This document shows, piece by piece, positions 3,218 through 9,140 of a stretch of 64,000 bases of DNA. Below the pieces are notes generated by a model. That model did not search any database, was not told the DNA's origin, and saw only the letters and a list, made by a program, of their open reading frames with translations. Each line of letters opens with the position of its first letter. Position 1 is the first letter of the stretch. The stretch covers positions 1 through 64,000 of the forward strand of contig JAPLOL010000090.1 of assembly GCA_026400735.1 (NCBI GenBank), read 5' to 3'. The position numbers and the translations under genes were made by a program. Source of the DNA: Alphaproteobacteria bacterium (GTDB lineage: Bacteria; Pseudomonadota; Alphaproteobacteria; Caulobacterales; Aquidulcibacteraceae).

Positions 3218-4600
3218 GCTCGCCAACTGACCAGCGGCGGCGATCGAACGTGGATCGCCGTCGCCAATTGTCAGCGCGATGTGCGCGCTATCGAATTCCC
3301 GCAACGCCAGATCAAAGCTCCGCCAGCGTCCGTCGACATACGCGACGACCCAGCTGTGCGGAATGAACGCGTTGCTCACCCCATGATAGCTCTGCCGCGA
3401 ATACGAAACCCCGCTCGCCACGCGCGTCGGAATCCCCGCCGCACGGCCAAGCGCCGCGAGCAGCACCGCCGCCTCCGTGCAATCGCCGCGGCGGCGATCA
3501 AGCGTATCCAACGCCGAATAGTGACCGTTGAAATCCGCTTCTTCCAGATACGGAATCGCGCGCTGCAACAGCACTTCCATCTTGCGTGCATCCGAAACGT
3601 CGTAGCCACGCGCAGCCGCCGCCATTGCCTGAAGCCTCGGGTGATCGCTCTGCAGCCACGTGGTCGGCCGCAACGCCGACGCGAGGTAGGCCGCATCTGT
3701 CGGTAAACCTGGCCCGCACGTGTCGCAAATATCTAATGTGATGAAGCCGCCATCCGCATGAGCCCTCTGCTCGCCGGTTTGCGGCAGCGGAAACGTCAAT
3801 CCATCGCGAAATTCGTAGCGATAGCGAATGTGACCACGCCGCGCCTCTTGCGAGATCTGAAACGGCGCGCGCTGCGCCATGTTCGGGATCACCTGATACG
3901 GGGGATGCCGCTGCTCAGCCGTCGCGCGATCAGTGAGCCGCACACGAAAGGTTTCGCCGAACATCGGCTGCGCCACTTCAAGCAGTTGCCGGTCAGCTAG
4001 CACCAAGCGAGAGACGCCGCGTAAGTCTTGGCCCTCATAACGCCAGCGCACTGCGTTGATGCGCCCTTGCGCATCCGGAGGGCCTAGCGCTTCGACAACG
4101 ATGCGTTCAACGGCCATGGAGTCACTGTCGAAGTTCAAGAACTCCAAACGCGGCGTACTTTCCGGCGTCCAGCTCTGGACCAACGCGTCGCCGTCATCAA
4201 AGCGCACATCAGCCGGTAGCATAATCGTTTCGCGGCCACTCCCCGCCGGCGTCTCGCGCAACACGTCCACGCGGTCGGCGTGAACCGTGGCGCGCGTCCG
4301 GGTCAAAAATCGTCCCGTGCGCGCAGTGGACTCAATCGACGACACCCGCCCGCCCGACTCTTCGCGAACCACGGTGCGCGTCGTGGTCCGGTTGGCGACG
4401 CCACCCCGCTCACGCAGATAGATCTGTTGGCTCTCGATCAGATCACGGCCGTCAGCGCGCGGCTCTACCTGAAGCGAAACATGACCCAAGGTCGCGCCGC
4501 TATCGGTAACGATCGTGTACCAAGTCGTCGGTTGATCTGCGGAGGCAAGCGTCACGCCCGCCGCCAACGCCACGCAAATGAATGCCACAAACCGCCTCAT
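3167..4600 (-). CDS. Transglutaminase-like domain protein, periplasmic
   Basis: A 477-residue exported protein (signal peptide MRRFVAFICVALAAGVTLAS). The C-terminal third has the transglutaminase/protease core: catalytic Cys in RRRGDCTEAAVLLAALGR, His in FIPHSWVVAYVDG and Asp in WRSFD. The N-terminal ~280 residues are beta-rich and of unknown role. Family members act as peptidases or cross-linkers; the substrate cannot be told. The gene ends inside the 3' end of the convergent small secreted protein gene. It lies 62 bases downstream of the ABC-F gene on the same strand, so the two may be co-transcribed. Confidence 0.8.
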   Translation of the reverse strand: MRRFVAFICVALAAGVTLASADQPTTWYTIVTDSGATLGHVSLQVEPRADGRDLIESQQIYLRERGGVANRTTTRTVVREESGGRVSSIESTARTGRFLTRTRATVHADRVDVLRETPAGSGRETIMLPADVRFDDGDALVQSWTPESTPRLEFLNFDSDSMAVERIVVEALGPPDAQGRINAVRWRYEGQDLRGVSRLVLADRQLLEVAQPMFGETFRVRLTDRATAEQRHPPYQVIPNMAQRAPFQISQEARRGHIRYRYEFRDGLTFPLPQTGEQRAHADGGFITLDICDTCGPGLPTDAAYLASALRPTTWLQSDHPRLQAMAAAARGYDVSDARKMEVLLQRAIPYLEEADFNGHYSALDTLDRRRGDCTEAAVLLAALGRAAGIPTRVASGVSYSRQSYHGVSNAFIPHSWVVAYVDGRWRSFDLALREFDSAHIALTIGDGDPRSIAAAGQLASLLRLDTMAEVRTRVGG

Positions 4601-4662
4601 GTCACGACGCTAGTTCAGCCCGCGCCGCCCTCCGCCTCACGTCTCCGCGAGCGGCGCGGCGA

Positions 4663-6243
4663 TCACTGCAACGTGAGCCGCCGCGTAACGCCCACTGCAG
4701 TCAGGAAAGCCTCGTCGTGGCTCACAATCAGCAAGGCGCCATCGAACGCACGCAGCCCCTCCTCCACCGCCTCGATCGAGTAGATATCGAGATGGTTGGT
4801 CGGCTCATCCAAAATCAGCAAGGGCGGCAGCATCTCGCCGCCCAGAACGCACGCCAGTCCCGCGCGCAACATCTGCCCGCCACTCAGGGTACTGACGATC
4901 TGCAGCGCCGCATCGGCGCGAAACATGAACCGCGCCAGCGCCGATCGGCATGCGTTCTCGTTCGCGCCCGGATTAATCTTCAAAAAGTTATCGCGGATCG
5001 AGAGCGCAGGATCGAGTACACTGACACGCTGATCCAACAACGCGTACTTCGTCATCACACGCACTGTCCCGGACCAAGGCTGCATTGCACCGGTGATCAG
5101 CGCCAAGAGCGTCGTCTTCCCCGATCCGTTCGGGCCCGTGATAGCCACACGTTCCGGCCCGGTGATCGAAAACGAAAGTGCATTCAGCACCGGCCGCCCC
5201 GGCTCATATCCGACGCTGACATCCTTCAGCTTGAGCACATCCCTTTGCGCAGCCAGCTGCGTCGACGGCAGCGATACTGTGAACGGCTGCAACACTTCAA
5301 TTCGTTCGCGCGCCGCACTGAGATCCGCCTCGGCATCATCACGCTGTCGTTCCGCCAGTCGCGACATGCTCCCACTCGTCTCTTCCGCCTTGCGCTTCAG
5401 CCCACCGATGATGATCCGCGGCATGTCTCCTTTCGCCGCCTTGCGCTTGCCCACGCTATCCTTGCGAGCCTTGCGCTCAGACATCATCTGCACCGTCTCG
5501 GCAACGTCAGCGATGCGCTTCTCTGTGTCCGCCAAGTCATGCTGCGCCGCCGCCAACTCCAGCGCCTTGCGTTCGCGATACGCACCCCAATTGCCGCCAT
5601 AGCGGCGTACGCCCAGCGTCGTCATCTCGACAATCGCATCCATTGAATCGAGTAATTCGCGATCATGACTCACGACCACCCCGCCCGCGCGCCAGCTCGC
5701 CAGCAACTCAATCACCGCCGCGCGGCCATCGCGATCGAGGTTGTTCGTCGGTTCATCGAGAATGATGAAATCGGGTTCCGCAAACACCAACGCGGCCAAC
5801 GCGGCTCGCGTGCGCTGACCACCCGACAATGCGCCGAGCAATGTCGCCGCATCTGCATCAAGCCCAAAACGCGCCAGCGCTTCGGCGAGCCGCGTCTCAA
5901 GCGTCCAGTCCGCGTGCGCGAGATCGTCCGGATCCGCTTCGCCTAGTTCCGCCCGCTGCAGGACGGCCAACGCATCGCCAATCCCAAACAGGTTAGCGAT
6001 CGTTTCATGCGGATCGACCTGCACCATCTGGCGCAACACAGCGACGCGCCCAGTAACGGACACGCCGCCGCTGCGCGGCTGCACGTCGCCGGCAACGATC
6101 TTCAGCAGCGTGGTTTTGCCCACACCGTTGCGGCCAACGAGCCCCGCTCGTTCGGCGCCAAAAGTGAAATCGAGATCGGCAAACAGCTCACGCCCATCAG
6201 GCGTGGCCCAACTCAAGTTGGAAAGCGTGATTGTAGCAGGCAT
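4663..6243 (-). CDS. ABC-F family ATPase
   Basis: A soluble protein of about 526 residues with two ATP-binding cassettes and no membrane segment. Walker A motifs are GRNGVGKTT and GPNGSGKTT; signature motifs are LSGGQRTR and LSGGQMLR; Walker B segments are FIILDEPTNNLD and LLILDEPTNHLD. A charged, Lys/Arg-rich linker with several Glu-Arg stretches joins the two domains. ABC-F proteins bind the ribosome E site and relieve stalling or give antibiotic protection; which paralogue this is cannot be decided. Start ATG 6243 (MPATITLSNL) fits the family N-terminus; ATG 6255 is an alternative. Confidence 0.85.
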   Translation of the reverse strand: MPATITLSNLSWATPDGRELFADLDFTFGAERAGLVGRNGVGKTTLLKIVAGDVQPRSGGVSVTGRVAVLRQMVQVDPHETIANLFGIGDALAVLQRAELGEADPDDLAHADWTLETRLAEALARFGLDADAATLLGALSGGQRTRAALAALVFAEPDFIILDEPTNNLDRDGRAAVIELLASWRAGGVVVSHDRELLDSMDAIVEMTTLGVRRYGGNWGAYRERKALELAAAQHDLADTEKRIADVAETVQMMSERKARKDSVGKRKAAKGDMPRIIIGGLKRKAEETSGSMSRLAERQRDDAEADLSAARERIEVLQPFTVSLPSTQLAAQRDVLKLKDVSVGYEPGRPVLNALSFSITGPERVAITGPNGSGKTTLLALITGAMQPWSGTVRVMTKYALLDQRVSVLDPALSIRDNFLKINPGANENACRSALARFMFRADAALQIVSTLSGGQMLRAGLACVLGGEMLPPLLILDEPTNHLDIYSIEAVEEGLRAFDGALLIVSHDEAFLTAVGVTRRLTLQ

Positions 6244-6611
6244 GGCGAGGCGCATTTCTCTTCGAGACAAAACAATTGGGTTTGCTCAGAGAATTTCCAT
6301 CGCCGCACGCATCTCTTCGGTTGAACGCTACGCCTACGAACGTAAGCGCCGCGAGCATCACTTCAAGTACAAAATTCGCAACGTCGCGTTTTTCGCCTTG
6401 ACGTCGCCACGAACCGCGATCATACACCCGCCCCTTCGCGCACGGCAGTCGCGCACGAAGAAATGAGAAAGACCGATGAGAAGCAATTTCGCATTCATCA
6501 CGCCAGCGCTGACCACGCTCAATCCATTGGGTTGGGTTGCGGTTGATGCACGCGCGCTTTCTTGTGGAGGTGAGATGGGCTGATCCCATTTCAGATGTTC
6601 GACGTTTCGAA
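6244..6611. other. Intergenic stretch, possible small RNA at its right end
   Basis: No credible coding sequence on either strand. The left part must hold the promoter of the ABC-F gene. On the right, a hairpin AGATGGG/CCCATTT (about 6573-6592) precedes a strong terminator, so a short plus-strand transcript may end at 6648. GGAGGTGAG followed by ATG GGC TGA (from about 6567) would encode only two residues. Confidence 0.4.
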
Positions 6612-6648
6612 CCCCTCCCGAGCTCACTGCTCCGGAGGGGTTTTTGTT
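6612..6648 (+). terminator. Strong rho-independent terminator insulating the RNA array
   Basis: The stem CCCCTCC-C-GAGC pairs with GCTC-C-GGAGGGG (6612-6623 with 6629-6640, one C-C mismatch), with loop TCACT and tail TTTTTGTTT. There is no obvious gene directly upstream on this strand. It could end a small RNA and shield the downstream RNA array from read-through. Confidence 0.85.
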
Positions 6649-6681
6649 TCCGCCTCTCCGAAGCCTTCGTCATGCGGAAAC
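6646..6681. repeat. Inverted repeat GTTTCCGC...GCGGAAAC ahead of the RNA array
   Basis: A perfect 8-bp inverted repeat (6646-6653 and 6674-6681) whose loop holds a small CGAAG/CTTCG palindrome. It starts within the U-tract of the preceding terminator and ends 18 bases before the first array unit. It could be an operator, a leader hairpin or an anti-terminator. It does not carry the conserved array motifs. Confidence 0.5.
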
Positions 6682-6699
6682 AAAGGAGATTTTTGACAT

Positions 6700-6767
6700 T
6701 CCAGGTGGTGAAGAGGCGGAGTTCTTCGTTCTCCAAAACCAAAGGCCGCTTCGACCGTTCCCCTGGA
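6700..6767 (+). ncRNA. Array unit 1, short form
   Basis: Terminal stem TCCAGG/CCTGGA (6700-6705 with 6762-6767). Conserved TGGTGAAGAG follows, then GTTCTTCG. An inner hairpin GGAG (6718-6721) / CTCC (6731-6734) is present. At 68 bases it has no T-arm or D-arm sequence and may represent the minimal Ro-binding stem. Confidence 0.7.
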
Positions 6768-6774
6768 TACATTT

Positions 6775-6959
6775 TTGTCGGTGGTGAAGAGCGCGGATAC
6801 TTCGCTCTGGATAAAGCTGGTTCGAATCCAGCCGGCGCATGCATCGTACCGTGGAGGCGATCCCGCAAAGATCGTCGTGACGCGGGCTCCGAGCGCGAGA
6901 CCTTGTCTCAAGCTTTGCGATGATGATGGCTTGGCCCGTTCTCGACCGTTCCCCGACAA
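6775..6959 (+). ncRNA. Array unit 2, long form with T arm
   Basis: Terminal stem TTGTCGG/CCGACAA (6775-6781 with 6953-6959), conserved TGGTGAAGAG, then ATACTTCG. A textbook T arm is present: GCTGG, loop TTCGAAT, CCAGC (6816-6832). No convincing acceptor or D arm follows; instead about 115 bases contain other hairpins (CCCGC/GCGGG; GAGAC/GTCTC). At 185 bases it is the longest unit. Confidence 0.75.
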
Positions 6960-6970
6960 GACGAATGTCA

Positions 6971-7122
6971 CAACGGTGGTGAAGAGATCTGTTACTTCGA
7001 TTAGGGCGACGGTGTCGCGGGTTCGAATCCCGCCAGGTCCAACACTTTGGGGCCTGTAGCTCAGTCTGGTAGAGCACGTGCTGCCGAAAGGCAGCGTCTC
7101 AGATTTCGCCCGTTCCCCGTTG
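6971..7122 (+). ncRNA. Array unit 3, complete permuted tRNA-like module
   Basis: Terminal stem CAACGG/CCGTTG (6971-6976 with 7117-7122). After TGGTGAAGAG and TTACTTCGA comes the T arm GCGGG-TTCGAAT-CCCGC (7017-7033). An acceptor-like helix follows, CAGGTCC (7034-7040) with GGGCCTG (7050-7056), closed by the loop AACACTTTG. Next are TA and a D arm GCTC-AGTCTGGTA-GAGC (7059-7075), then a GAAA-capped hairpin (7080-7095). The order T arm, acceptor, D arm is the reverse of a tRNA: a circularly permuted tRNA body whose anticodon side opens onto the terminal stem. Confidence 0.88.
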
Positions 7123-7133
7123 CGGCTGCCAAT

Positions 7134-7255
7134 TTGGCGGTGGTGAAGAGATCGCGTTCTTCGTGCAGGGACAAAATGCTGGTCCGCCCCAGGGCGTGCA
7201 GAGCGTGTCAGCTTCCGCAAGGAAGCAGTTTCGCGTCTCGTCTGTTCCCCGCCAA
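7134..7255 (+). ncRNA. Array unit 4, degenerate tRNA-like module
   Basis: Terminal stem TTGGCGG/CCGCCAA (7134-7140 with 7249-7255). A T-arm-like hairpin CTGG-TCCGCC-CCAG (7179-7192) lacks the TTCRA loop. AGAGCG may be a D-arm relic. A GCTTCC-GCAA-GGAAGC hairpin (7211-7226) matches the GNRA hairpin position of unit 3. Confidence 0.72.
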
Positions 7256-7299
7256 TGCCATTGCTGCGCCGGTCGCAACGATCGGTGCGGCGTTAAGTT

Positions 7300-7437
7300 T
7301 GGCGGTGGTGAAGAGTACGAGTGCATCGGAAAGAGCACCGCATCGCGAGATGCGGAGGTCGCGCGTTCAACTCGCGCCAGGGCAACCTGTAGCTCAGTTT
7401 CCCGCAAGGGAGTTCTCGTCTCGATCGTTCCCCGCCA
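7300..7437 (+). ncRNA. Array unit 5, tRNA-like module with miniature acceptor stem
   Basis: Terminal stem TGGCGG/CCGCCA (7300-7305 with 7432-7437). A CCGCATC-GCGA-GATGCGG hairpin sits where an anticodon arm might be. The T arm is GCGCG-TTCAACT-CGCGC (7361-7377). The acceptor is only CAGG/CCTG, capped by GCAA (7378-7389), and is followed by TAGCTCAG of a D arm whose loop has become a CCC-GCAA-GGG hairpin. Confidence 0.8.
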
Positions 7438-7445
7438 TCCGAGGT

Positions 7446-7532
7446 CAGCCGGTGGTGAAGATGTCCGCTACTTCTTTGGTGAAGCTCGACCCCATGGGTC
7501 GAACACGCGGAGATCACAGCGTTCCCCGGCTG
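7446..7532 (+). ncRNA. Array unit 6, short form
   Basis: Terminal stem CAGCCGG/CCGGCTG (7446-7452 with 7526-7532). The conserved strand is TGGTGAAGA, then CTACTTC. The inside has nested hairpins: CCGC/GCGG (7465-7468 with 7507-7510) enclosing TCGACCC/GGGTCGA (7486-7492 with 7496-7502). There is no tRNA-like sequence. Confidence 0.72.
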
Positions 7533-7551
7533 GCATTTGGTTTTGTGAAAT

Positions 7552-7571
7552 TTGGCGGTGGTGACCGCCAA
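7552..7571 (+). repeat. Collapsed array unit
   Basis: TTGGCGG, then TGGTGA, then CCGCCAA: both terminal stem strands of a unit-4-like element with the interior and GTTCC strand missing. It looks like a deletion remnant and marks turnover of the array. Confidence 0.6.
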
Positions 7572-7577
7572 GTCGTG

Positions 7578-7718
7578 CGTCAGCAGGTGGTGAAGAGGTC
7601 CGTTACTTCGACTGTTAATCGCGTGGTCGCGGGTTCGAGTCCCGCCAGGTCCTCCACTGTGGACCTGTAGCTCAGTTGGGAGAGCACGAAACGGTCTCGT
7701 CTGTTCCCCTGGCTGACG
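7578..7718 (+). ncRNA. Array unit 8, complete permuted tRNA-like module
   Basis: The terminal stem CGTCAGC-AGG/CCT-G-GCTGACG (7578-7587 with 7708-7718, one bulged G) is the longest in the array. The T arm is GCGGG-TTCGAGT-CCCGC (7629-7645). The acceptor CAGGTCC/GGACCTG (7646-7652 with 7661-7667) is fully Watson-Crick and closed by TCCACTGT. The D arm is GCTC-AGTTGGGA-GAGC (7670-7685). Upstream, CTGTTAA (7612-7618) looks like a tRNA-Asn anticodon loop. It lies closest to the Ro60 gene. Confidence 0.88.
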
Positions 7719-7778
7719 TTCTTTCGGCGATTGTCGCCAGCGTACAATGATGATGGAGTAGGAAGTGTAGGTGATGAG

Positions 7779-9101
7779 ATGGTGAAGCTGAACAAACCCC
7801 AGGCCGTGCGCACGCATGAGGGCGCAAAGGGCCGCGCGTTCACGCCGGAGGCGCAACTGCGCCGCGCATTGATGAACTCGATGCTCTGGGAAAACCAGTT
7901 CTACGAGGACGGCGTCGCCATCGCCGAGCGCATGGCTGCGCTCGTTCCGAAGGTGAAGGCCGAGACCGTCGCCGCGCTCGCCATCAAAGCACGCGAAGAT
8001 ATGAAGCTGCGTCACGCGCCGCTTTTGATCGTGCGTGAAATGGCGCGTCATGAAACGCATCGCGCGCTCGTGGCCGATACGCTTGAGCGCGTCATTCAGC
8101 GTCCGGACGAATTGACCGAATTCCTCGCCATCTACTGGGCCGATGCGCTCGGACCGATGCAGCAACGCAAGAAGGCTGCGGTCTCGGCGCAGATCAAGAA
8201 GGGCCTGGCGCGCGCATTTGCGAAGTTCGAGGCCTACCAGCTCGCCAAGTACAACCGCGATGGCGCTGTGCGCCTGCGCGACGTGCTGTTCATTACCCAC
8301 GCCAAGCCGAAAGACGAGGCGCAGGAAAAGATCTGGAAGCAGCTGGTCGATGGCAAGCTAACCTCCCCCGACACGTGGGAAGTCGCGCTGTCGGGCGGGG
8401 CCGACAAGAAGGAGACGTTCGAACGTCTGATCGCCGACAAGAAGCTCGGCGCCCTCGCTCTGTTGCGCAACCTGCGCAACATGCAGGTCGCCGGCGTTTC
8501 GAAGAAGGCGATCGGCAAGGCGCTCGATGAGATGCGTACCGATCGTGTTCTGCCCTACCGCTTCATCGCGGCCGCGCAGCACGCCCCGGACCTCGAACCC
8601 GAACTCGAACACGCGATGTTCCGTTCGATCGAGGGTCACGCAAAGCTGACGGGCAAGACGATCCTGCTTGTCGACGTTTCGGGCTCGATGGACTCCCCGC
8701 TTTCGGGGCGTTCGGAGATGCGCCGTCTCGAAGCCGCGAACGGTCTGGCCATTCTCGCACGCGAGATCGGTGAGGACGTCGAGATCTACACGTTCTCCGA
8801 TCACGTGAAGAAAATCGCGCCGCGCCGTGGCTTTGCACTGCGCGATGCGATCACCTCTTCGCAGCCGCATAACGGCACGTGGTTGGGCAAGGCCGTCACC
8901 GAAGTTGACCGCAAGGACGCGCGTTTGATCGTCTTCACCGACGAGCAATCGCATGATCCGGTGCCCGCGCCGAAGGGTGTTGGCTACATGGTCAACGTCG
9001 CGTCGTACCAGCACGGCGTTGGCCACGGCGATTGGCGTCGCGTCGACGGTTTCTCGGAAAAGATCCTAGATTGGATCATCGCCAGCGAAGCCGCGGAGTA
9101 A
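7779..9101 (+). CDS. rsr: Ro60-family RNA-binding protein (TROVE + vWA), Rsr
   Basis: A 440-residue orthologue of Ro60/Rsr. The N-terminal ~280 residues are the helical-repeat TROVE ring that binds Y RNA on its outside and RNA ends through its centre. The C-terminal part is a von Willebrand A domain with a MIDAS motif (DVSGSM near residue 301), a Thr in GTWLGKAV and an Asp in LIVFTDEQ. Bacterial Ro proteins work with Y RNAs, and in studied species with nucleases such as PNPase, in RNA quality control. Start ATG 7779 has AGGTGA upstream; an upstream TTG would add 16 residues from the leader. The protein is shorter than the ~530 residues usual for Ro60. The RNA array directly upstream supplies obvious ligand candidates. 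Confidence 0.92.
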   Translation: MVKLNKPQAVRTHEGAKGRAFTPEAQLRRALMNSMLWENQFYEDGVAIAERMAALVPKVKAETVAALAIKAREDMKLRHAPLLIVREMARHETHRALVADTLERVIQRPDELTEFLAIYWADALGPMQQRKKAAVSAQIKKGLARAFAKFEAYQLAKYNRDGAVRLRDVLFITHAKPKDEAQEKIWKQLVDGKLTSPDTWEVALSGGADKKETFERLIADKKLGALALLRNLRNMQVAGVSKKAIGKALDEMRTDRVLPYRFIAAAQHAPDLEPELEHAMFRSIEGHAKLTGKTILLVDVSGSMDSPLSGRSEMRRLEAANGLAILAREIGEDVEIYTFSDHVKKIAPRRGFALRDAITSSQPHNGTWLGKAVTEVDRKDARLIVFTDEQSHDPVPAPKGVGYMVNVASYQHGVGHGDWRRVDGFSEKILDWIIASEAAE

Positions 9102-9105
9102 AACG

Positions 9106-9140
9106 AAGGCCCGCGTTCCGTTAGGAGCGCGGGCCTTTTG
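9106..9140 (+). terminator. Terminator of the Ro60 gene, possibly bidirectional
   Basis: A 10-bp stem AAGGCCCGCG/CGCGGGCCTT (9106-9115 with 9128-9137), then TTTTGTTTT on the plus strand. The minus-strand side reads into TTCGTTTTA, so it may also stop the convergent RmlC-like gene. Confidence 0.85.

What the first reader, a model, noticed from the sequence alone, without database searches (positions are those of the whole stretch)
6700..9101. Tandem array of seven Y-RNA-like units directly upstream of a Ro60 gene
Seven plus-strand units and one remnant share TGGTGAAGA and GTTCC strands, each closed by a different but perfectly complementary stem. They run into a TROVE-vWA (Ro60/Rsr) gene with no terminator between. 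Bacterial Ro proteins bind Y RNAs, usually one or a few per genome, some of which mimic tRNA. Here the ligand locus is amplified and diversified: short forms without a tRNA body (units 1, 6), partial forms (2, 4, 5) and full forms (3, 8). This could be a set of adaptors sending different RNAs or nucleases to one Ro ring.
Basis: partly seen in the sequence, partly recalled or inferred. Interest (0 to 1): 0.95.

Follow-up and report, generated by a model that had tools for sequence, protein, structure and literature searches.

The report
Tandem tRNA-mimicking Y RNAs beside Ro60
Seven small RNA genes in a row, just before a Ro60-type gene, share one docking stem but carry different, mostly tRNA-like heads; similar arrays stand before the same gene in related bacteria and in bacteriophages, which makes them a natural toolkit for learning what bacterial Ro60 does.

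Summary
Window 6697-7715 carries seven Y-RNA-like units and one collapsed remnant on the strand of the Ro (TROVE-vWA) gene that follows. The core (P1 stem with bulged U, GGUGGUGAAG, P2, UUACUUCG, GUUCCCC) covaries across 41 units. (1) The array is not peculiar to this genome: 4-7 units usually stand before the same Ro in Hyphomonadaceae and Bradyrhizobium, 2-4 in Acidobacteria, 5-8 in Caulobacter, Brevundimonas and Xanthomonas phages, where some are annotated as tRNAs. (2) Unit types keep their order within Hyphomonadaceae (12 of 12 loci) and within Bradyrhizobium, though not between these groups. (3) 'Partial' unit 5 is a nearly whole tRNA, circularly permuted, with the Ro stem grafted into its D loop: put back in tRNA order, ARAGORN of 8 such inserts, against 0 of 8 as they stand, 0 of 2400 shuffles and 0 of 495 other rotations. 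Units 3 and 8 are YrlA-type (Ro stem at the anticodon position); unit 2 has its own conserved domain. Most likely each unit is a Ro handle with a different head; what the heads bind is unknown. A test for mimicry of particular tRNA species was negative. New variant of a known kind.

The parts
6610..6642 (.). inverted repeat followed by a T run: intrinsic terminator just upstream of the array (would end an upstream transcript); recurs in 9 of the 10 other Hyphomonadaceae loci printed
   Evidence: L009 lacks it
6643..6684 (.). inverted repeat GTTTCC...GGAAAC (11-nt arms in the window) between terminator and first unit; operator or leader hairpin
   Evidence: I4; similar repeat read by eye in most Hyphomonadaceae loci
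6697..6769 (+). U1, short Y unit without tRNA-like head
   Evidence: R1 E 7.2e-11 (a training member); reciprocal best partner in 9 of 12 loci
6773..6960 (+). U2, Y unit with T-arm hairpin plus conserved ACCGUGGA...ACGCGG domain; shared with the first Bradyrhizobium unit
   Evidence: partner in 10 of 12 loci
6968..7124 (+). U3, YrlA-type unit (T, acceptor and D arms in permuted order, Ro stem at the anticodon position) with an extra hairpin
   Evidence: Rfam YrlA E 2.4e-8; partner in 12 of 12 loci
7132..7256 (+). U4, Y unit with non-tRNA hairpin head
   Evidence: R1 E 6e-10 (a training member); partner in 5 of 12 loci
7262..7292 (+). 14-pair hairpin between U4 and U5 with a poor U tail
7297..7439 (+). 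U5, Y unit whose head is a nearly complete tRNA (D, anticodon-like, T and closed acceptor arms) circularly permuted in the D loop
   Evidence: ARAGORN after un-permutation; same type in L014, L017, L019, L022, L033 and L037 by classifier, and by reading in L043 and G057; partner in 4 of 12 loci
7444..7533 (+). U6, short Y unit
   Evidence: R1 E 1.1e-7 (a training member); partner in 6 of 12 loci
7552..7571 (+). collapsed remnant of a unit (TTGGCGGT GGTG ACCGCCAA hairpin)
   Evidence: sequence, fold
7579..7715 (+). U8, minimal YrlA-type unit next to the Ro start
   Evidence: Rfam YrlA E 1.1e-7; partner in 8 of 12 loci
7779..9101 (+). Ro60/Rsr ortholog (TROVE-vWA, 440 aa from ATG 7779)
   Evidence: fold match to Ro structures 9kop, 9l5y, 2nvo, 1yvp
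9105..9138 (+). intrinsic terminator after Ro

Best explanation
The locus makes one Ro ring protein and a set of seven different Y RNAs. The units share a Ro-docking handle (closing stem P1 with GG-U-GG/CCCC, UGAAG internal loop, P2, mostly UUACUUCG) and each has its own head. Two short units dock without a tRNA-like head (U1, U6); two carry the YrlA tRNA elbow with the Ro stem in place of the anticodon arm (U3, U8); one carries a near-complete tRNA with the Ro stem grafted into the D loop and the acceptor end closed (U5); one carries a T arm plus the ACCGUGGA domain (U2); one carries plain hairpins (U4). The array and Ro are probably transcribed together and the units cut out as separate RNAs. 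By analogy with RYPER of Deinococcus, in which a Y RNA tethers Ro to PNPase, the heads would bring the Ro ring to different partners: PNPase, or enzymes that read the tRNA elbow. Shown: anatomy, covariation, fixed order of unit types within families, linkage to Ro, occurrence in phages. Inferred: co-transcription and processing, Ro binding by each unit, the adaptor role.
For: Core of 41 units: 84.4% of cells paired against 62.9% shuffled; covariation score 0.568 against 0.170, 0 of 500 shuffles; the P2 helix, which played no part in choosing units, has changes on both sides at 8 of 8 pairs. YrlA-type class: score 0.363 against 0.118, 31 sequences. U2 class: 0.432 against 0.208, 23 sequences. 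Reciprocal best unit pairs keep their order in 12 of 12 Hyphomonadaceae loci; in 12 Bradyrhizobium loci (the reference among them) the four units pair in order, in L025 three of four. 132 of 132 model R2 matches in 33 bacterial Ro loci lie on the Ro strand, upstream of Ro (partly training members). Phages not used in training carry the same cassette: CcrColossus 8 and CcrPW 8 contiguous units, Kabachok 5, Olaya 5. D-loop permutation of U5. Ro fold: the 13 best matches are Ro/TROVE structures, among them phage phiLo Ro60 and Deinococcus Rsr. Published parallel: a Listeria phage has three highly transcribed regions, proposed as Y RNAs, within 2 kb upstream of an Rsr-like gene (PMC12282133, passages read).
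Against: No transcript, processing or binding data exist for this genome, which is an assembly of 173 contigs. Units fall below Rfam's YrlA gathering score. Order is not kept between families: against the window the Bradyrhizobium units pair weakly and mostly out of order, and L043 and L035 are out of order against Bradyrhizobium. Heads vary: U4 has a partner in 5 and U5 in 4 of 12 loci, and 8 U2-type units lack a standard T loop (L016, L017, L023, L030, L031, L032, L034, L038). Other Ro lineages of the class show only 0-2 model matches in the short flanks held (L058 1, L059 2, L060 0, L063 0, L064 1, L065 2). Units for alignments were chosen partly by their closing stem, which favours P1 pairing; one search is the unbiased stem test. 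The Ro model is only moderately confident (pLDDT 79.3, pTM 0.58).
Confidence: 0.55

Rival explanations
1. tRNA decoys: the tRNA-like units lack a cleavable anticodon and a free 3' end, and soak up tRNA-attacking or tRNA-modifying enzymes, protecting host or phage tRNAs; Ro stabilises them or captures damaged RNA.
For: The cassette is carried by phages and tRNA-like heads are frequent: 45 YrlA-type, 7 D-permuted and 28 with a T arm but no D arm, of 133 bacterial units by a simple classifier. This genome also holds RtcB followed by five divergent tRNAs. [quoted passage not shown]
Against: Mimicry of particular tRNA species was not supported: D-arm and T-arm best matches agree no better than chance (386 of 3000 shuffles as high for 21 units, 822 of 3000 for 14 phage units; the reference was 35 distinct tRNAs of the window's genome from 31 loci scanned, 30 of its 45 tRNA hits having loci, so not the phages' own hosts). 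Short units and U2/U4 are not explained.
Confidence: 0.22
2. Leader-based autoregulation: the units are structured elements of the Ro mRNA leader; Ro binds the last unit and adjusts its own synthesis to the supply of free Y RNA.
For: The last called unit ends 35-70 nt before the aligned Ro start in 26 of 32 loci with called units; no good terminator separates them in the window.
Against: Explains neither the conserved variety of heads nor arrays of up to 8; in Microcystis phage Mvi-JY20 the matches lie downstream of Ro. It can coexist with the main reading.
Confidence: 0.13
3. Decaying tandem duplication of one YrlA gene, with tRNA fragments captured at random and no separate functions.
For: A remnant lies in the array (7552-7571), unit numbers differ between relatives, and order is not kept between families.
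Against: Compensatory changes in core and heads, fixed order of types within Hyphomonadaceae over Ro proteins that differ by up to about 22%, and the same type U5 beside a classical Rsr in G057.
Confidence: 0.07

Closest known systems
YrlA (Y RNA-like A) bacterial Y RNAs, Rfam RF02553
   Same: U3 and U8 have T, acceptor and D arms in the YrlA order with a basal stem at the anticodon position; long stem formed by the ends; neighbour of a Ro gene
   Different: Below Rfam's gathering score (45.7 and 43.5 against 69 bits); no YrlA match reaches it in 18 relatives' and phage loci; seven units, of which U1, U2, U4, U5 and U6 are not YrlA in head
RYPER (Rsr-Y RNA-PNPase) of Deinococcus radiodurans
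   Same: Ro ortholog plus Y RNA; the Y RNA tethers Ro to PNPase (PMC8394870, PMC7790460, PMC4726728: passages read)
   Different: One tether described there; here a set of different heads; PNPase tethering untested
rsr-yrlBA-rtcBA RNA repair operon of Salmonella
   Same: Ro with more than one Y RNA in an operon (PMC7790460, passages read)
   Different: Here the RNAs come first and Ro last, seven RNAs rather than two, and RtcB lies on another contig
Phage-encoded Ro/TROVE proteins (jumbo phages, crAss001, Thermus phage phiLo)
   Same: Homologous Ro (51% identity in Brevundimonas phages); arrays of 5-8 Y units in Caulobacter, Brevundimonas and Xanthomonas phages
   Different: The passages read mention the protein or putative Y RNAs, not arrays of typed units
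Permuted tRNA genes (red algae and others; recalled, no call)
   Same: 3' part precedes 5' part of the tRNA
   Different: U5 has no free CCA end, no constant anticodon loop and sits inside a Ro-binding stem

Membership tests
Ro60/Rsr protein | TROVE domain plus vWA domain with Ro fold | tested here: met
   TROVE 3.5e-20 and VWA_2 3.5e-6 over cut-off, vWA_Ro60 below its cut-off (20.3 against 27.7 bits); fold matches Ro structures, TMq 0.59-0.72
Ro60/Rsr protein | binds Y RNA and ends of misfolded RNA | not testable with these tools
   needs binding assays
Bacterial Y RNA (YrlA, RF02553) | T, acceptor and D arms in YrlA order on a basal stem | tested here: met
   U3 and U8: Rfam E 2.4e-8 and 1.1e-7, helices covary except the D stem, which hardly varies. 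U1, U2, U4 and U6 lack the set; U5 has it in another permutation
Bacterial Y RNA (YrlA, RF02553) | Rfam gathering score 69 bits | tested here: not met
   best 45.7 bits; 0 of 289 class genomes have a match over it, so the model may simply not cover alphaproteobacteria
Bacterial Y RNA (YrlA, RF02553) | gene next to a Ro gene | tested here: met
Bacterial Y RNA (YrlA, RF02553) | bound and stabilised by Ro in cells; modified by TruB/Dus | not testable with these tools
   property reported for YrlA (PMC8394870, passage)
RYPER | Y RNA tethers Ro to PNPase | not testable with these tools
   needs co-purification
tRNA (RF00005) | ordinary tRNA order with anticodon and 3' end | tested here: not met
   ARAGORN 0 genes in the window; the U5 insert is called only after un-permutation

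The most novel reading that the evidence does not exclude
The Ro/Y array is a portable kit, shared by bacteria and phages, that displays several different faces of tRNA on one protein ring: elbow without anticodon (YrlA type), near-complete tRNA grafted through its D loop (U5 type), and further domains. It works in the conflict over tRNA between phages, plasmids and hosts, as decoys and docking points for tRNA nucleases, repair and modification enzymes. A number of 'tRNA' annotations in jumbo phages would then be misread Y RNAs.
Probability: 0.25. Interest if true: 0.92.

Novelty: new variant of a known kind. Interest (0 to 1): 0.74.

Why it matters
What bacterial Ro60 and its Y RNAs do is largely open. 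This locus turns the question into a comparison designed by nature: one docking handle and several heads, in a fixed order within each group, present in culturable Bradyrhizobium and in Caulobacter phages. It adds a second way of building a tRNA-like Y RNA (Ro stem in the D loop), shows that phages carry whole arrays, and points to mis-annotated phage tRNAs.

Tried and rejected
Rejected: ordinary tRNA genes and other Rfam families. Mimicry of particular tRNA species: tested and negative. The U3/U8 likeness to tRNA-Lys(UUU) of the own genome is suggestive only. The reading that genomes without a window-type Ro lack Ro: one search found 11 of 60 and missed classical Ro proteins; PF05731 found 14 of 60, 13 over its cut-off. 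RF02553 as a genome probe: it also rings in 6 of 14 control genomes, so I built R1 and R2. Promoter scan: 0 hits; in five phages TTGACA stands shortly before the first unit (read by eye). crAss001: five TTACTTC-type copies beside Ro, but the looser motif is not confined to the gap (6 of 26), R1 gives nothing and R2 only E 0.07, so left open. cr106_1 and Streptomyces phage Satis gave no R1 match and were not given to R2. IMG/VR L112 gave two R2 matches 1.3-1.8 kb upstream (1e-8 and 0.006). Rotations of U5-type inserts other than the true cut, and shuffles, gave no tRNA call. Models match their own training units by construction. No paper search listed or showed arrays of typed Y units or D-loop-permuted Y RNAs (passages of the papers opened), but the main papers (Chen 2014, Burroughs and Aravind 2016, Sim and Wolin 2018, Wang 2018) were not held, so prior description cannot be excluded.

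Dropped before counts: L003-L008, L010, L011 and L013 (the window's own contig or the same contigs as named loci); L018 (short contig) and L029 (one unit called) from the order test; 41 of 74 core sequences kept after removing near-copies; 31 of the 36 U3/U8 references printed used in A2; 18 of 24 Ro rows kept (L039, L040, L042, L043, L113 and L114 dropped after the stop-codon errors, which named L043).
Full report
OBSERVATION. Window 6697-7715 holds seven units and a remnant on the + strand, followed by a Ro gene (ATG 7779, stop 9101). The 5' motif occurs 7 times here and the looser pattern nowhere else in the genome. Closing stems are complementary far beyond chance in a test that does not choose partners. 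A terminator-like repeat precedes the array and a strong terminator follows Ro; between them, on the + strand, the scan lists only overlapping hairpins with a poor tail at 7262-7292 and a weak site at 7451-7472.

WHAT THE UNITS ARE. I aligned the ends of 41 units from 12 loci, kept from 74 units of 15 loci after removing near-copies. The common core is P1 (variable, then GG-U-GG paired with CCCC), the UGAAG internal loop, P2 of about 8 pairs, a strand that mostly reads UUACUUCG, and on the 3' side a short loop ending in GUUCC. 84.4% of cells pair against 62.9% after shuffling, covariation 0.568 against 0.170 with 0 of 500 shuffles as high, and sliding the partner by 1-3 columns destroys it. 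Units had been picked partly by P1 pairing, so P2, with double changes at 8 of 8 pairs, is the cleaner evidence. Heads differ. U3 and U8 are YrlA-type: Rfam's YrlA aligns to their T, acceptor and D arms (E 2.4e-8 and 1.1e-7, below the gathering score); over 31 sequences the T and acceptor helices covary while the D stem hardly varies. U2 has a T-arm hairpin and a conserved ACCGUGGA-hairpin-ACGCGG domain shared with the first Bradyrhizobium unit, covarying over 23 sequences; 8 such units lack a standard T loop. U1 and U6 are short. U4 has plain hairpins.

U5 IS A GRAFTED tRNA. Its insert reads: D-loop 3' half, D-stem 3' strand, anticodon-like hairpin, variable piece, T arm, acceptor 3' strand, short loop, acceptor 5' strand, D-stem 5' strand, D-loop 5' half. 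It is a tRNA cut open in the D loop, with the ends joined to the Ro stem and the acceptor closed. Swapping the halves back, ARAGORN calls a tRNA in 5 of 7 such inserts (L022 and L043 fail) and in 1 of 1 from G057; as they stand 0 of 8; dinucleotide shuffles 0 of 2400; other rotations 0 of 495. In 4 of the 6 calls ARAGORN could name no amino acid (tRNA-???), and the anticodon loops differ between loci (sequences), so decoding is unlikely. In YrlA the Ro stem sits at the anticodon; here it sits in the D loop.

CONSERVATION. The one genome-contig scan gave 32 loci. Against the window units, reciprocal best pairs keep their order in 12 of 12 Hyphomonadaceae loci (U1 in 9, U2 10, U3 12, U4 5, U5 4, U6 6, U8 8). 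In 12 Bradyrhizobium loci (one of them the reference) the four units pair in order, except L025 with three. Between groups the order is not kept: window against Bradyrhizobium pairs weakly and mostly out of order, and the distant loci L043 and L035 are out of order against Bradyrhizobium. Shared descent means the loci are not independent trials, but within Hyphomonadaceae types have been kept over Ro identities of 78-95%. The YrlA-type model R2 gives 132 matches in 33 bacterial Ro loci, 132 on the Ro strand and upstream of Ro. Acidobacterial loci have 4 (L041), 4 (L042, one at E 0.004) and 2 (L040). L029 shows one unit only, and L018 is cut by its contig end.

LINKAGE TO RO. Of 60 family genomes 14 have TROVE, 13 over the cut-off. 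Full-length R2 matches with E below 1e-6 occur in 13 of these 14 (not G010; in G011 on another contig than Ro) and in none of the other 46; one of the 46 (G058) has a partial match to the tRNA-like part (E 5.4e-7), and five more (G039, G045, G049, G056, G029) have matches at E 1.6e-4 or weaker. G057 has a classical Rsr (vWA_Ro60 3.2e-63) with its own array: by reading and folding, short, YrlA, YrlA, short and D-permuted units. In the class 9 of 385 genomes have TROVE; clusters of three or more motif copies on one stretch occur in 3 of these 9 and in none of the other 376 (counted from its list). Six of the nine carry other Ro lineages, with 0-2 R2 matches in the 1.5-kb flanks held.

PHAGES. 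tblastn finds 75 phage records with this Ro, at 50-53% identity in Brevundimonas, 51% in Xanthomonas and 48% in CcrColossus phages. I looked at 11 phage loci, one plasmid and three IMG/VR contigs. Model matches upstream of Ro: CcrColossus 8 contiguous units (2217-3415 of L071), CcrPW 8, Kabachok 5, Olaya 5, Kikimora 5, Gurke 4 by the models plus one by rule, Deinococcus gobiensis plasmid 2, IMG/VR L113 and L114 3 each. Rhizobium phage RHph_Y65 has eight GTTGCGA repeats, all in the gap before Ro, and 4 model matches. Microcystis phage has 2 just downstream of Ro. crAss001 gave only a weak R2 signal, cr106_1 and Satis no R1 match. Annotated tRNA-Gln of CcrColossus and tRNA-Ser of Kikimora and Gurke lie inside Y units (with 102). 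In the Ro tree the alphaproteobacterial proteins of the window type form one clade (29 rows, 100/98); Caulobacter, Brevundimonas and Xanthomonas phage proteins form another (8 rows, 98/98) that includes one bacterial protein, G022, and one IMG/VR contig; the other phages stand apart on long branches whose places are unsure.

MECHANISM. A common handle and maintained, different heads fit a set of adaptors on one Ro ring, on the model of RYPER (PMC8394870, PMC7790460, PMC4726728: passages read). A decoy role in conflicts over tRNA is the main rival; its sharpest prediction that I could test, agreement of D arm and T arm on the same tRNA species, was negative, with the caveat that the reference tRNAs were those of the window's genome. 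Leader-based autoregulation is possible since the last unit ends 35-70 nt before the aligned Ro start in 26 of 32 loci. Expression is not shown here; a Listeria phage study reports three highly transcribed regions upstream of an Rsr-like gene and proposes Y RNAs (PMC12282133, passages), and a review reports the crAss001 TROVE gene among the early genes (PMC10136315, passage).

NOVELTY. Ro and Y RNAs, YrlA mimicry, and Y RNAs in phages are known. Typed, ordered arrays, the D-loop graft, the U2 domain and the phage arrays did not appear in the search listings or passages I saw; the main specialist papers were not held, so part of this may be in print.

Noticed in passing
G000:C32:20983-22813 (L111, L115), another contig of the same genome: RtcB (E 3.6e-129) is followed directly by five tRNA genes (Asp, Met, Tyr, Pro, Glu) whose sequences differ strongly from other copies found in the genome; a second RNA-repair-like island.
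   Followed up: partly
L071 2631-2698; L073 3269-3343; L078 2769-2843: tRNA annotations (Gln, Ser, Ser) in Caulobacter and Brevundimonas phages lie inside Y units and are probably wrong.
   Followed up: partly
L076 4321-5225 (crAss001, downstream of Ro): Repeats with TTACTTC and tRNA halves in ordinary order around them; Rfam calls a tRNA across 4594-4737 with a large insert.
   Followed up: partly
L069 7300-7555; L073 6844-7189; L078 6345-6690: Brevundimonas jumbo phages encode a permuted tmRNA over Rfam's gathering score.
   Followed up: no
window 6540-6645: A stretch ending in a terminator before the array, with a GTTCG...CGAAC inverted repeat, recurs in relatives; perhaps a small RNA of its own.
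   Followed up: no
L014 2162-2304: Rfam calls a tRNA (44.9 bits) across two neighbouring permuted units: adjacency of permuted units can fake a linear tRNA.
   Followed up: no
G011:C88:275-433 and C84:8109-8236: Y-like matches on two contigs of a genome with classical Ro on C84; one match lies away from Ro.
   Followed up: no
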